Assembly: GCF_000835165.1 (NCBI RefSeq) | Contig: NZ_CP007790.1 | Location: forward strand, 1 to 64,000 | Length of the DNA stretch: 64,000 nt | Reading direction: 5' to 3' | Source of the DNA: Corynebacterium marinum DSM 44953 | GTDB lineage: Bacteria > Actinomycetota > Actinomycetes > Mycobacteriales > Mycobacteriaceae | Part shown: in pieces, positions 1,676 through 54,163 of the stretch | Layout: each line of letters begins with the position of its first letter | Position numbering within the stretch: the first letter of the stretch is position 1 | Made by a program: the position numbers and the translations under genes | The notes under the pieces: model-generated | Seen by the model: the letters and a program-made list of their open reading frames with translations, nothing else | Told to the model about the DNA's origin: nothing | The model's database searches: none

Positions 1676-2201
1676 GCGATTCATCCCCAGAAAAGAAGGC
1701 CATCCACAGGGTTGTCCACAGCAGTGTAATTACAAGAATGTAAGTCAGAGAGATTAGTCACAGAGTGGCCGGGAGCACATTCGGGCGGGGGCCTGTGGAT
1801 AACTATGTTTCCCCTGTTGAGAAGTGGTGTCCGGGGTGGGGAGCAATTGTGGACAACTCCGCCTGTGGATAATTTATCCACAGATGGGCAGAGTTATCCA
1901 CAGGTTGTCCACACCCTGAATCACACCGTGTATTCGATCCGCTACCTTGTGATTCAGGGCCCCATCCACAGATTGCACAGGACCTATTGTTACTACTCCT
2001 TTTAAAACTTGTAATTTCTAAAGAAGAAAAAGGGTGTGGGGAGAACAGCTCGGCAGGGCGGGCCGGGGCCGCCGCGGCGGGGGACTTCCTGGAATTACAG
2101 GATTTCGACTGACGGGACCGTGGGGTACGTTGGTGATTGTTGTTTCAGGTCCGCCCGTCCTTCCGGCGGTGGATCACACATATTTCGAGGAGCCCGAAAG
2201 C
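1676..2201. other. oriC: Replication origin oriC (dnaA-dnaN intergenic region)
   Basis: Non-coding dnaA-dnaN spacer with clustered DnaA boxes on both strands. Perfect TTATCCACA boxes are at 1794-1802 (-), 1864-1872 (-), 1874-1882 (+) and 1894-1902 (+). TTGTCCACA-type boxes are at 1712-1720 (+), 1848-1856 (-) and 1905-1913 (+). Weaker ones read CCATCCACA near 1962. The tight block at 1848-1913 holds five boxes. An AT-rich stretch at about 1980-2035, ending in an A-rich tract before dnaN, is the likely unwinding element. Location, box density and AT-rich flank fit the standard actinobacterial origin. The short open frames across it are chance. The dnaN promoter must also lie here but is not clear. 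Confidence 0.95.
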
Positions 2202-3418: not shown

Positions 3419-4600
3419 ATCTACATCAGGACGCTTGATCTGCGGGATTTCCGCAGCTGGCCGCAGCTGACCCTGGAGCTCGAGCCGGGGATCACACTGT
3501 TTCTCGGCCGCAACGGCTTCGGCAAGACCAACATCATCGAGGCCGTGGGCTACATCGCGCACCTGTCCTCGCACCGCGTCTCCCACGACGCCCCGCTGGT
3601 GCGGGCGGGGGCGGTAAACGCGCGGATCACCGCGACCGCGGTCAACCAGGGCCGGGAGTTGACTGCCCACCTGCTGATCAAACCGCACGCCGCGAATCAG
3701 GCGCAGATCAACCGGACCCGGCTGAGCTCACCGCGGGAGGTGCTGGGGGTGGTGCGTTCCGTGTTGTTCGCGCCGGAGGACCTGGCGCTGGTCAAGGGGG
3801 AGCCGGCGGAGCGCCGCCGCTATCTCGACGACATCATCGCCACGCGCAGTACCCGCCTGGCCGGGGTGAAGGCGGACTACGACAAGGTGCTGCGCCAACG
3901 CAACGCGCTGCTCAAGACGGCGGGCGCTGCGCTGCGCCGCGGTTACCGGGACTCCGACGGGGCGAGCGCGCTGGCCACCCTCGATGTGTGGGACGGGCAG
4001 CTGGCCGCCCTGGGTTCTCAGGTGACCGCCGCGCGGCTGAACCTCGTCGACGAGCTGGGCGACCTGATCGCGGAGGGTTACGCGGGTCTGGCGCCGGAGT
4101 CGCGGCCGGCGCAGGTGGGTTACCGGTCGACGGTGGCGTCGGAAAGCAGGGACCCGCAGGTCCTCGAGGCGGAGATGCTCGCGGAGCTCGGCCGGGGCCG
4201 CCAGCGGGAGATCGAGCGCGGGATGTCGCTGGTGGGGCCGCACCGCGATGATCTGGCGCTGAAGCTGGGCGGGCAGCCGGCGAAGGGATTCGCGTCGCAC
4301 GGCGAGACCTGGTCTTACGCGATCTCGCTGCGCCTGGCGGAGTTCCGGCTGCTGCGCCGCGACGGTTCGGATCCGGTGCTCATCCTCGACGACGTGTTCT
4401 CGGAGCTGGACGCGGGCCGCCGCGAGCAGCTGGTCAGGCTGGCGGCGGAGGCCGAGCAGGTGCTCATCACCGCCGCGGTGGCCGGGGATCTGCCGGATAA
4501 TCTCGGCGAGCTGTCCCATGCCCCGCTCCGGCGTTTCACCGTCGGCGTCCGGGACACCGGGGAGGGCCGCGTCAGCGTGCTGGAGCCCGACGATGAGTGA
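3419..4600 (+). CDS. recF: DNA replication/repair protein RecF, apparent ATC start
   Basis: SMC-like ATPase that loads RecA at gaps with RecO and RecR. Family homology starts at [13 protein letters not shown], encoded from 3422. Walker [10 protein letters not shown] is near residue 36, the ABC-type signature region near 290, and Walker [12 protein letters not shown] near 320. In this frame a TGA at 3410-3412 is followed only by GCA CAC ATC TAC, with no ATG, GTG or TTG before the Walker A motif. The first standard start (GTG 3545) would delete the ATP site. GGGAGG at 3404-3409 sits about nine bases before ATC 3419. I therefore take ATC as the start, giving 393 residues, the normal RecF size. 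A sequencing error or a true ATG-to-ATC change are the alternatives. Confidence 0.93.
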
Positions 4601-22532: not shown

Positions 22533-23180
22533 GTGACCACCCTGCGCCGTTGGTGGGCTGACGCCCCCGCCACCACACTGCTCACTCTCACCGCGGTTAT
22601 CGTCTACGCGATCACCGCGCTGCAGTCCGGCTCCCTGATGGACAACCTCCCCGGTTCCTCTCTCGGCGCCGCCTGGGTCCTCTACGGCCCGGAGGTAGCG
22701 CAGGGCGGGCTGGACCGCCTGCGGGCCCTCGGCGCGATCTTCCTCCACATCGACCTGGGCCACGTGGCCATCAACAGCTTCATGCTCCTGCTCATAGGCC
22801 GCGAGATCGAGCGGTTCGCCGGCACAGCCCTGTACTCCGCGGCCTTTTTCGCCGGGGGAATCGGCGCCTCCGCCACCGTCCTGTGGATGGCGCCGTACAA
22901 CCCGACCGCGGGGGCCTCCGGGGCGTTGTTCGCGCTCATGGTCCTGCTGCTGGGCATCACCCGCGCTCGGGGCGGCGACCTGCGCGCGCCCCTGGCGCTG
23001 ATCCTGGTGAACGTGGCGTACACCTTCATCGCCCCGTCAGTGTCTCTCTGGGGCCACCTCGGGGGACTCTTCGCCGGTCTGCTCATGGTGTTGTTCTTCG
23101 TCCACCCGCGGGCAGCCTTTCGCTGGGCGGGTGTGCTGGGCGTGCTCCTGCTCTCCTGCGCGGCAGTCCTGCTTGTGTAA
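22533..23180 (+). CDS. Rhomboid family intramembrane serine protease
   Basis: 215 residues from GTG 22533. Six or so membrane helices. The catalytic Ser is in GASGALFALM near residue 128 and the catalytic His in LWGHLGGLFAGL near 172. The HxxxN of the oxyanion region is HVAINSFML near 75, and the usual rhomboid GxxxG spacing is present in the last helices. Rhomboids cut single-pass membrane proteins inside the bilayer. The substrate is unknown; the anchored surface proteins in the window are only possibilities. It sits downstream of ppiA, a conserved order in corynebacteria, and converges on the DnaA-box gap. Confidence 0.93.
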   Translation: MTTLRRWWADAPATTLLTLTAVIVYAITALQSGSLMDNLPGSSLGAAWVLYGPEVAQGGLDRLRALGAIFLHIDLGHVAINSFMLLLIGREIERFAGTALYSAAFFAGGIGASATVLWMAPYNPTAGASGALFALMVLLLGITRARGGDLRAPLALILVNVAYTFIAPSVSLWGHLGGLFAGLLMVLFFVHPRAAFRWAGVLGVLLLSCAAVLLV

Positions 23181-23547
23181 TCCGGGGGCTGAAAGTTATC
23201 CACAGGCTGTGGAGTGATCTGTGGATATTGTGAAGAACATCTCTTCGGGCAAACCATCCCCAGCCTGTGGATAACTTTGTGGACAGTTTTCCCCACCTGC
23301 GCAAACGTTCGAATAATTCACGATTTTCACAGCTTATGGGGCCAGCCGACGAACTTTTCCGGTGTCCTGACACCAAACTACACACGTGTAACTATCCACA
23401 GTGTGGATAACTCCTGTGGAAGGATTCCGGCCGTGGGGGCTGGTGGATAACTCCGTGGAATTCTCCACCGGCCTGGGGATAAACAGGGCAGTTATCCACA
23501 TTCCTCCGCCCGGTGACTGATTCGTGTCCTTCGCACCTGTGGCAGCC
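23181..23547. promoter_or_regulatory. Cluster of DnaA boxes, possible datA-like site
   Basis: A 367-base gap between convergent genes with no coding potential. Perfect TTATCCACA boxes lie at 23196-23204 (+), 23266-23274 (-), 23402-23410 (-) and 23492-23500 (+). One-mismatch boxes lie at 23220-23228 (-), 23392-23400 (+), 23442-23450 (-) and 23474-23482 (-), with a TGTGGACAG at 23278-23286. That density rivals oriC. An AT-rich stretch sits in the middle (about 23300-23335). It lies between gene ends, so promoter control by DnaA is unlikely. DnaA titration (as at datA in E. coli), DnaA reactivation or an accessory origin are the candidates. The boxes are seen; the role is inferred. Confidence 0.8.
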
Positions 23548-25015
23548 TCAGGACATCGCCAGGGCAATCCCCATCACGACCAGGAAGCCGACGAACGGGG
23601 CGATGACGGTCACCCTGCCGATGTCCTTGTAGGACTGGCGGTGCGTGAGGCCGCACACGAGTAGCAGGGTGATGACGGCACCGTTGTGGGGGAGCGAATC
23701 GAAACTGACGGAGGCCATCGCCGTCACGTGGTACATCAGCTCCGGACTGACGCCCTGTTCGGCGGTCATTCGCGCAAGATCTGAGCCGAAGCTCTCCAGC
23801 GCGATGCTGAGTCCGCCGGAGGACGATCCGGTGATGGCTGCGATCACGGCGGTGGATAGTTCCGCCACCACGAGCGCGTTGTCGCTGACCTCGAATATGC
23901 CTTCCCGGATGACGGCGAATATTGCCAGTGAGGCGATCACGCCACCGTAACCGACCTCGCTCGCCGTGGTGAATGCGGGGAGCACGGCGGTCTTGGCGCC
24001 CTCCGAGATGCCGTCGACGTAGTCCTTGGCCCGCTTCGGCCGCATGAGGAAGATGGCGATGACCGCCGTGGCGAGGGCGATCGTCACCGACCAGACCCCG
24101 ATGACACTGCTCAAGGTCGTGGCGCCGAACTGTTCCTCGGCGAGGTAGTCGAAGTTCATCGTCGTGGAGAAGACGTACACGAACAGGAAGTTCATGGTGA
24201 CGACGACCAGAATGGGCACCAGCGCGATCACGCCCCTGACGGCCACGTTCTGCGCTGTCTGCGGGCGCTCCAGGACTGCGACGCCGCCGCCGGTGGACGG
24301 TGCCGTGCCGGCGGGGGAAGGGCCGTCACTGTCCGGCGATCCCGCTTTCAGGTCGGGTCCATATGATTCTCCGGCGTGGATTAATTTGCGCTGGCGCCAG
24401 GTGAGCCAGGCGATTCCGAAGGCGTAGGTGACCATTGCCCCGAGGATGCCCAGGACCGGGGCGGCGAACGTGGTGGTTTCGAAGTACCGGGTGGGGATGG
24501 CGTTGTGGATCTGCGGGGATCCCGGCAGGGCGGCCATGGCGAAGGAGAAGAACCCCAGGGCGATCGCGGCCGGCATCAGGCGTTTGGGGATACCCGCCTC
24601 CTGGAACAGGGCCTGCGCGATCGGGTACATCGCGAAGACCACCACTCACGCGCTCACGCCGCCGTAGGTGAGCAGTGCCGAGGCTATCGACGTGGCGAGG
24701 ATGGCGCGCTGCGGGCCCAGTGCCCTGGAAATCCACCGGGCGAGATCTTCGGCGTACCCCGATACCGACATCAGCCGTCCGAAAATTGCGCCGACCAGAA
24801 ACACCGGGAAGAACTTCACGATGAATCCGCCCAGGGCCGGCATAAAAATTTGAGTGTAGGAGGCAAAGAGAAGTGCCCCGGAGAACAGGACGGCGATCAT
24901 CGCGGCGACCGGCGCGATGAAGATGACTGAGTGGCCCCGGTAGGCGAAGAAAATGAGGAATGCCAGCGACACCAGGATGCCGATAAAGGGAAGGACTATA
25001 GGGGTTCTCTTTCAT
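23548..25015 (-). pseudogene. GntP-family permease, disrupted by a frameshift and a stop
   Basis: A gluconate/organic-acid proton symporter of the GntP type, about 488 codons if repaired. Family motifs remain: TYGGVS near residue 120, GSSSGGLSIALESFG near 390 and SFDSLPHNGAVITLLLVCG near 430. Two lesions are visible. First, ATG 25015 gives MKENP, but one extra base (T after CCC, about 25000) throws off the frame; removing it restores IVLPFIGILVSLAFLIFF. Second, an in-frame TGA at 24648-24646 splits GGVSA from VVVFAMYP, probably a former TGG. The rest reads without damage, so decay is recent or the sequence is wrong at two points. The 3' end borders the DnaA-box cluster. Confidence 0.85.
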
Positions 25016-25366: not shown

Positions 25367-25633
25367 CTAGCGCCAGCCCATCGTCATCAGCAGGCCCAGG
25401 ACGAAGAGTCCGAAGCCGATGCCGTAATTCCAGGGCCCGAGTTCCACCATGAAGGGGATCTGGGCGCCCGCCAGGTAATTCACGATGAGCCACACGAGTC
25501 CCGCGAGCATCAGCCCGAACATGAGGACCTTGTACCAGAGCGGCGTGCCGCCGGTGTTGATCTTCACGGGGGTGCGGTTGGCGGAGGAGGTCGAATGGGC
25601 GATGGGGCTCTTGGTGATCTTTGCCTTGGGCAT
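25367..25633 (-). CDS. crgA: Cell division protein CrgA
   Basis: 88 residues from ATG 25633. A basic N-terminal tail ([20 protein letters not shown]) is followed by two membrane helices: [20 protein letters not shown] near 35-54 and [19 protein letters not shown] at the end. This is the standard CrgA layout. In actinobacteria CrgA interacts with FtsZ, FtsQ and the penicillin-binding proteins and helps place the divisome. Its position directly downstream of pknB is conserved. 46 bases separate it from pknB, so it may be read from the same transcript. Confidence 0.92.
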
Positions 25634-53996: not shown

Positions 53997-54163
53997 TGAA
54001 GTTCTCCTCGTGGATGTTGCTGCGTGTAGCGAAAATGATATTCCCAATAATGGCCAGGAACAATCCGCGGGAGGGGAATCGTGTGTCTGTGTGGCATCAG
54101 GGGAGGGGCGGGGGTTTCACGTGGAACATCCCGGGGCATTGGCGGGAAGGTCCATGAGGGCGC

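What the first reader, a model, noticed from the sequence alone, without database searches (positions are those of the whole stretch)
23181..23547. Second dense DnaA-box cluster 21 kb from oriC
Four perfect TTATCCACA boxes and at least four one-mismatch boxes lie in 367 non-coding bases between convergent genes. A given 9-mer is expected about 0.003 times there on both strands. The site is not at a promoter, so transcriptional control by DnaA is unlikely. A datA-like titration site, a DARS-like element, or a remnant or accessory origin are the options. datA and DARS are known from E. coli; I am not aware of a described corynebacterial equivalent, but cannot search.
Basis: partly seen in the sequence, partly recalled or inferred. 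Interest (0 to 1): 0.75.

Follow-up and report, generated by a model that had tools for sequence, protein, structure and literature searches.

The report
DnaA control site beside crgA
Near the cell-division gene crgA and the chromosome's replication origin lies a cluster of binding motifs for the replication starter protein DnaA whose position and layout recur in many sampled actinobacteria; it likely tunes how active DnaA is, and it probably matches a site of unknown role that DnaA binds in the tuberculosis bacterium.

Summary
In detail: four perfect and four one-mismatch DnaA boxes lie at 23196-23500. They contain a fixed three-box core (23387-23424): two boxes face each other across 1 bp, and a third, degenerate in this genome, follows after 4 bp. 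The facing pair occurs in 117 of 201 Corynebacterium genomes; it lies 13-58 kb downstream of dnaA in 64 of 68 listed same-contig cases. The conserved neighbour is crgA, not the permease. In 69 crgA loci from across the class, DnaA boxes occur at 8.8 per kb in the 150 bp beyond crgA's end and 0.1 per kb in and upstream of crgA; 1/4 bp is the best of 169 spacings in 29 of 69. The probable M. tuberculosis counterpart binds DnaA, role open (PMC7738170). Box order and orientation equal E. coli DARS cores; spacing does not. Best reading: a DnaA-activity control site working like DARS (nucleotide exchange), but not a DARS family member; titration is a close rival. A second origin is not supported. 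Against: 16 of 30 core-less Corynebacterium genomes examined show no box within 1 kb of crgA's end, and the core is weak or absent in Streptomyces-like genomes.

The parts
23387..23424 (+). three-box core (38 bp): box I, 1 bp, box II inverted, 4 bp, box III in the direction of box II
   Evidence: alignment A1 of 30 cores; model R1 hit at 23387-23421, E 3.5e-12; PWM score 59.3 here, 2.5 at the next best other place in 464 kb of chromosome
23392..23400 (+). core box I, CTATCCACA (one mismatch)
23402..23410 (-). core box II, perfect TTATCCACA
23415..23423 (-). core box III, degenerate in this genome (three mismatches, keeps TCCACA); a box of at most two mismatches stands at this place in 58 of 77 distinct cores of this and other genera
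23196..23204 (+). perfect DnaA box, inside the first arm (23192-23213) of a 22-nt inverted repeat with 23257-23278
23220..23228 (-). one-mismatch DnaA box ATATCCACA
23266..23274 (-). perfect DnaA box, inside the second arm of that inverted repeat
23442..23450 (-). one-mismatch DnaA box TTATCCACC
23474..23482 (-). one-mismatch DnaA box TTATCCCCA
23492..23500 (+). perfect DnaA box
22533..23180 (+). rhomboid protease gene, 3' end faces the cluster
   Evidence: Pfam PF01694, E 8.2e-22
25367..25633 (-). crgA, cell division gene; the conserved neighbour of the site across the class
   Evidence: Pfam PF06781, E 2.5e-33
23548..24972 (-). GntP-type permease lying between cluster and crgA in this genome; reading frame interrupted by an in-frame stop at 24646-24648
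1712..1913 (.). dnaA-dnaN DnaA-box cluster (oriC), seven boxes at up to one mismatch, for comparison; AT-rich stretch from 1992

Best explanation
The cluster is a non-coding DnaA-box site whose three-box core recurs beyond the end of crgA in many actinobacteria, and it likely works as a DnaA-activity control site in the manner of E. coli DARS, where DnaA molecules predicted to sit head-to-head on boxes I and II would exchange ADP for ATP. Shown: the boxes, the favoured spacing, the genus- and class-wide position, and in three genomes a changed box spelling shared with boxes at dnaA. Published for the probable mycobacterial counterpart, not tested here: DnaA binds it, and variants of it resemble dnaA variants. 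Inferred: that DnaA binds this corynebacterial copy, that box III and the flanking boxes stabilise or extend the complex, that the outcome is reactivation rather than removal of DnaA, and that the near-origin position matters because the site would double soon after each initiation.
For: A favoured geometry is kept, which a passive sink would not need: palindromic pair in 117 of 201 genus genomes, reversed-pattern control in 1 of 201; over 169 spacings the 1/4 combination is best in 29 of 69 class loci, 0 of 69 in one shuffle of each locus; core score above 0 within 320 bp of crgA in 39 of 69, at 320-900 bp in 3 of 69, elsewhere in 0 of 69. Box order and orientation equal the DARS1 and DARS2 cores as I located them in MG1655 and as described: box I opposite to II and III, head-to-head contact (PMC5742627, PMC8682772; passages). 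In 3 of 8 genomes compared the cluster's shifted spelling recurs at dnaA. At the M. tuberculosis site DnaA binds in IDAP-seq and EMSA, at the M. smegmatis homologue in ChIP-seq, and site variants give longer cells like dnaA variants, which the authors liken to reduced-activity alleles: the direction expected if the site activates DnaA. No promoter or terminator.
Against: Spacing differs from DARS (1 and 4 bp against 5 and 3 bp); the DARS spacing is not among the favoured ones, and the core matrix does not score at DARS1, DARS2 or datA. Box III is degenerate in this genome. With strict hexamers only 4 of 69 class loci have the 1-bp facing pair within 300 bp of crgA and 6 of 69 have a 14-bp one, so outside the genus box I or II is often degenerate; in five Streptomyces-like loci (L259-L263) four core scores are negative. 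7 of 20 origin-region loci also score above 0, up to 9.8. Corynebacterium adds many further boxes (24 in 500 bp in L108), which suits a sink. Mycobacterial dnaA variants did not change initiation rate. 16 of 30 core-less Corynebacterium genomes examined have no box within 1 kb of crgA's 3' end. IHF and Fis, which drive DARS2, are not known to me in this group (recalled). I found no binding data for this copy.
Confidence: 0.45

Rival explanations
1. Negative control: the cluster is a near-origin DnaA sink or datA-like inactivation site. It would double soon after initiation and take DnaA away from oriC, preventing a second start.
For: Early-replicating position, 13-58 kb from dnaA in 64 of 68 listed cases; expanded arrays in many Corynebacterium genomes; near-origin DnaA-box clusters repress initiation in B. 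subtilis and S. coelicolor according to the review passage in PMC5742627; boxes near oriC are called ideal for titration in E. coli (PMC12371093, passage).
Against: A sink needs number and affinity, not a favoured 1/4 geometry; 62 of 69 class loci have only one to four boxes in the crgA gap. The site variants in the mycobacterial counterpart resemble reduced rather than excess DnaA activity.
Confidence: 0.35
2. DnaA acts here as a transcriptional regulator of crgA or the rhomboid gene.
For: Class-wide association with crgA.
Against: The site is at the 3' ends of both genes, with no promoter-like site in 23000-23700; in mycobacteria neither Rv0010c nor Rv0011c expression changed in dnaA mutants; relative to the rhomboid gene 17 of 29 loci carry the core in the opposite direction to the window.
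Confidence: 0.05
3. A secondary, accessory or former replication origin.
For: Eight boxes against seven in the dnaA-dnaN region; the cumulative GC-skew minimum of 464 kb lies at 23,581.
Against: Highest AT content in 40 bp is 0.625 here against 0.775 at oriC, though in 2 of 10 relatives the two are equal; leading-strand octamers do not switch at 23 kb but about 48 kb upstream of dnaA; the skew is almost as low 24 kb upstream of dnaA and gene direction turns at the cluster; the core is not found strongly at oriC.
Confidence: 0.04
4. A DNA-architecture site: DnaA bridges it to oriC or helps fold or place the origin region.
For: Favoured spacing and near-origin position; actinomycete DnaA domain I contacts were proposed to link distant DnaA-box clusters within Streptomyces oriC (PMC13270200, passage).
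Against: No direct evidence; copies at 136-140 kb from dnaA exist.
Confidence: 0.1

Closest known systems
DnaA interaction site Rv0010c-Rv0011c of Mycobacterium tuberculosis and its M. smegmatis homologue (PMC7738170)
   Same: Lies beyond the 3' end of Rv0011c (crgA; that identity is recalled); the paper describes a palindrome of two DnaA-box-like sequences. In 8 of 8 examined loci of group g29 (unnamed; Mycobacterium inferred from gene order and size) the core matrix's best hit, an imperfect palindrome followed by a third box, lies 101-103 bp beyond crgA.
   Different: The g29 loci have one to three boxes and no rhomboid match; the Corynebacterium copy is an array. The stricter model R1 finds a match in only 3 of 17 g29 genomes. 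The passages I read do not describe a three-box geometry or a class-wide range.
E. coli DARS1 and DARS2
   Same: Three-box core, box I opposite to II and III, perfect box II, box III degenerate.
   Different: I-II 5 bp and II-III 3 bp against 1 and 4 bp; DARS2 needs IHF and Fis; DARS lie far from oriC (recalled).
Near-origin DnaA-box clusters of Streptomyces (H69, H24, D78) and Bacillus subtilis
   Same: Dense boxes outside oriC that repress untimely initiation (review passage; cluster names recalled).
   Different: Papers not held. H69 may be this very locus, since cosmid H69 covers the crgA region in my recollection; untested.
E. coli datA
   Same: Intergenic DnaA-box cluster.
   Different: Minimal region is boxes 7, 2, 3 with one IHF site; the core matrix scores -13.2 on its region.

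Membership tests
DARS (DnaA-reactivating sequence) | Core of three DnaA boxes with box I opposite to boxes II and III | tested here: met
   box III degenerate in this genome, as in DARS1 and DARS2
DARS (DnaA-reactivating sequence) | Shared spacing of DARS1 and DARS2 cores (5 bp and 3 bp, read by me from MG1655) | tested here: not met
   1 bp and 4 bp here; (5,3) not among the favoured spacings
DARS (DnaA-reactivating sequence) | Stimulates ADP release from DnaA | not testable with these tools
   biochemical
DARS (DnaA-reactivating sequence) | IHF and Fis sites (DARS2) | not tested
   no such proteins known to me in actinobacteria (recalled)
Mycobacterial Rv0010c-Rv0011c DnaA site | On the ppiA side of crgA, beyond its 3' end | tested here: met
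   a permease lies between in this genome
Mycobacterial Rv0010c-Rv0011c DnaA site | Palindrome of two DnaA-box-like sequences | tested here: met
   description
Mycobacterial Rv0010c-Rv0011c DnaA site | Bound by DnaA | not testable with these tools
   published for the mycobacterial copies only
datA / near-origin titration clusters | Dense DnaA boxes outside oriC in early-replicating DNA | tested here: met
datA / near-origin titration clusters | Deletion causes extra initiations | not testable with these tools
   needs a mutant
oriC or accessory origin | AT-rich unwinding element beside the boxes | tested here: not met
   0.625 against 0.775 AT in 40 bp in this genome; in 10 relatives lower in 8 and equal in 2
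oriC or accessory origin | Leading-strand bias switches at the site | tested here: not met
   octamer bias switches near -48 kb; the GC-skew minimum at 23.6 kb is confounded by gene direction

The most novel reading that the evidence does not exclude
An ancient actinobacterial DnaA-reactivation element, a DARS equivalent with its own 1/4 box geometry kept beyond crgA across the class, of which the Corynebacterium array and the tuberculosis bacterium's cryptic DnaA site are two forms.
Probability: 0.35. Interest if true: 0.9.

Novelty: new variant of a known kind. Interest (0 to 1): 0.75.

Why it matters
How actinobacteria keep DnaA in check outside the origin is open. A cis element with a favoured geometry, found by sequence in many genera, gives a concrete target: one 38-bp core that can be removed or rebuilt in a harmless laboratory species. 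It would also give an evolutionary frame to a mycobacterial site linked in print to cell-cycle change and reduced isoniazid susceptibility, whose function its authors left open.

Tried and rejected
Second origin: the GC-skew minimum at 23,581 looked striking, but octamer bias and AT content did not support it. Mobile or plasmid origin: no match of the 367 bp in plasmids or phages. RNA element: only two sub-threshold Rfam hits, E 0.56 and 0.7. Terminator or promoter: none. The permease as conserved neighbour: rejected, its protein matched only the own-genome locus among the 85 loci searched with it. DARS membership: spacing not met. The core as a copy of oriC: best score in 20 origin-region loci is 9.8, against 59.3 here. 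Homology of non-actinobacterial core hits was not resolved. A C. glutamicum copy was not identified by name among fetched loci.

Full report
Observation. The window carries four perfect and four one-mismatch TTATCCACA boxes at 23196-23500. The whole genome has 21 perfect boxes in 2.73 Mb; 11 of these 21 fall in three origin-region gaps: dnaA-dnaN (4), this gap (4) and just upstream of dnaA (3). At the genome's own density 0.0028 perfect boxes are expected in 367 bp. Left of the gap lie ppiA and rhomboid; right of it a GntP-type permease, crgA and pknB (pknB by its kinase and PASTA domains).

A fixed core. Among the 30 best-matching rhomboid loci (30 of 182 genomes with a match among 201 in the genus; these are the nearest relatives, not a random sample), 29 carry a box cluster beside the rhomboid gene and a facing pair TATCCACA-N-TGTGGATA at up to two mismatches; L029 has neither. 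In that genome (G173) a cluster with the pair lies 27 kb away, and in G008, which has no rhomboid match, it is present beside ppiA. Scanned over 201 genomes at up to one mismatch, 117 have the pair and the reversed-pattern control appears in 1. Of 75 pairs in the (capped) listing, 68 share a contig with a listed dnaA: 64 lie 13-58 kb downstream on the dnaN side, 2 at 136-140 kb, and 2 are second copies far away in genomes that also have a near copy. In 77 distinct cores of this and other genera a third box (at most two mismatches) follows box II at the same spacing in 58 (the orientation of each core was chosen partly by this box, so the figure is somewhat flattered). In the window's own core box III has three mismatches. 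Thirty aligned cores give the 38-bp unit.

Lineages without the pair. Of the 84 genomes lacking it I fetched 37 rhomboid loci: 26 have at least four boxes (up to one mismatch) within 500 bp, 1 has three, 10 have two or fewer. A sequence-only model of the core matches 159 of 201 genus genomes at E 0.01 or better (the weakest were not checked by position). Of the 42 genomes without a model match I examined the crgA loci of 30: 13 have three or more boxes on the 3' side of crgA, 1 (G097) has two at 1.3 kb, and 16 have none within 1 kb; of these 16, two have a single box at about 1.1 kb, one at 1.5 kb, and G040 was seen only to about 0.9 kb. So the element is common in the genus but absent or moved in some lineages.

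Box spelling. In G032 the cluster is six of six TTTTCCACA and five of six boxes upstream of its dnaA are the same variant, although its dnaA-dnaN region keeps TTATCCACA. In G188 and G124 TTATGCACA is the commonest spelling in the cluster (6 and 5 of 9) and recurs on both sides of dnaA, beside TTATCCACA (origin regions of 19 genomes fetched, 8 of them compared with their clusters). Single TTATGCACA or TTTTCCACA boxes also occur at dnaA in several other genomes, so this is suggestive, clearest in G032. Both variants fit the E. coli consensus TT[A/T]TNCACA quoted in PMC8682772 (passages). Joint change is expected if the same protein reads both places.

Beyond the genus. At up to one mismatch the pair occurs in 44 of 301 genomes of the family, in 13 of 31 genera. 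A strict three-box pattern occurs in 56 stretches among 84,980 species: 41 Corynebacterium and 15 others (by hand estimate well under one is expected by chance). Of the 8 other actinobacterial stretches, 6 lie on the 3' side of a rhomboid-like gene, 5 of them within about 300 bp. CrgA occurs in 289 of 296 genomes sampled across the class. I examined 69 loci: the 30 returned as best matches minus the own genome, plus 40 chosen by hand for diversity from the listed matches. Boxes of the form [TC][TC]NTCCACA occur at 8.8 per kb in the first 150 bp beyond crgA's 3' end, 1.6 per kb in the next 150, and 0.1 per kb in crgA and upstream; reversed patterns stay flat; 58 of 69 have at least one box within 300 bp. 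With strict hexamers only 4 of 69 have a 1-bp facing pair there, and 6 of 69 a 14-bp one. A score matrix made from 59 Corynebacterium cores has its best hit within 300 bp of crgA in 58 of 69, though many of these scores are negative, including 4 of 5 Streptomyces-like loci; with a score above 0 there are 39 of 69 within 320 bp, 3 of 69 at 320-900 bp and 0 of 69 elsewhere; as a control, 7 of 20 origin-region loci score above 0, at most 9.8. A scan that did not know the core, over 169 spacings, found I-II 1 bp and II-III 4 bp best in 29 of 69, then 2/3 (12.5, ties shared) and 3/3 (7), and 0 of 69 for 1/4 in one shuffle of each locus. The model matches 137 of 296 class genomes; of 67 with both a listed model hit and a listed crgA, 43 have a hit within 1.1 kb of crgA and 24 only elsewhere.

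Known binding. PMC7738170 (passages, abstract with outline, sections 7 and 12) reports that M. [quoted passage not shown] that ChIP-seq in M. smegmatis finds homologues of the same five; that the Rv0010c-Rv0011c site holds a palindrome of two DnaA-box-like sequences with recurrent mutation in clinical strains; that variants there lengthen cells and lower isoniazid susceptibility like dnaA variants; and that neither neighbour's expression changes in dnaA mutants. The authors leave titration or nucleotide exchange open. That Rv0011c is crgA is my recollection. In 8 of 8 examined loci of group g29 (unnamed; Mycobacterium inferred from size and from ppiA and crgA without a matching rhomboid) the matrix's best hit sits 101-103 bp beyond crgA, scores 11.5-29.8; the model R1 finds a match in only 3 of 17 g29 genomes of the class sample. 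I take this as the same element; the link is by position and layout, not by a named sequence.

Mechanism. In E. coli, DARS cores have box I opposite to II and III, and DnaA on I and II meets head-to-head, which promotes ADP release (PMC5742627, PMC8682772, passages). In MG1655 I read the DARS1 and DARS2 cores as box I, 5 bp, inverted box II, 3 bp, box III (their places were recalled and confirmed only by this pattern). The corynebacterial core has the same order and orientation with 1 and 4 bp. E. coli DnaA also prefers box pairs 2-3 bp apart (PMC11317965, passages), close to II-III here. A favoured geometry speaks for a defined complex; the reduced-activity-like phenotype of variants at the mycobacterial site speaks for an activating role. 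Against this stand the changed spacing, the large arrays in Corynebacterium (24 boxes in 500 bp in L108), the degenerate boxes in other orders and the unchanged initiation rate of mycobacterial dnaA variants. I therefore hold DARS-like exchange at 0.45 and a sink or datA-like role at 0.35; correcting box III of the window to three mismatches did not change this, since box III of both DARS cores is degenerate as well.

What is new. No title listed in my searches concerns this site in Corynebacterium: 18 of 18 papers listed; 20 of 34; 2 of 2; none found; 15 of 30. Three papers name the mycobacterial site with DnaA: one seen as above, one as a passage (PMC9579286), one as listing only. Two Corynebacterium genome papers place oriC downstream of dnaA by six or seven boxes (PMC3219685, PMC2830990; passages). 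The Streptomyces and Bacillus cluster papers are not held, so overlap with Streptomyces cluster H69 cannot be excluded.

Noticed in passing
window 24646-24648: The GntP-type permease frame (23548-24972 -) is interrupted by an in-frame stop; only the upstream piece matches Pfam.
   Followed up: partly
own chromosome about 48 kb upstream of dnaA (G000:C1 near 2,559,000): Leading-strand octamers switch strand there (253 of 306 fit that cut) and not at dnaA, as if the origin region had been rearranged.
   Followed up: no
window 23581: Minimum of cumulative GC skew over 464 kb falls at the cluster's edge; it is almost as low 24 kb upstream of dnaA, and gene direction turns at the cluster, so probably confounded.
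   Followed up: partly
L211, L221, L186, L224, L178, L179, L190: The same core, with matrix scores of 30-55, occurs in Persicobacter (two records, between an SNF2 helicase and an MGS-domain gene), Bacteroidota MAGs (one with two copies, one near a ribonucleotide reductase gene) and Clostridia/Bacillota MAGs (two near gidB).
   Followed up: partly
class genomes of group g50 (large, Streptomyces-like, unnamed): Core-model hits covering boxes II-III lie 92-139 kb from crgA in several of them; possibly a second conserved DnaA site.
   Followed up: no
L108 (G119) 3673-4189: 24 DnaA boxes (15 perfect) within 500 bp at this locus, the densest of the loci in that scan.
   Followed up: no
L001-L030: Relative to the rhomboid gene the core stands as in the window in 12 of 29 loci and inverted in 17 of 29.
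   Followed up: partly
G000:C1:2359391-2359415 and 1375386-1375423: Two further close pairs of perfect DnaA boxes elsewhere in the own genome.
   Followed up: partly
window 54113-54128: A parS-like 16-mer with two mismatches to a recalled consensus.
   Followed up: no
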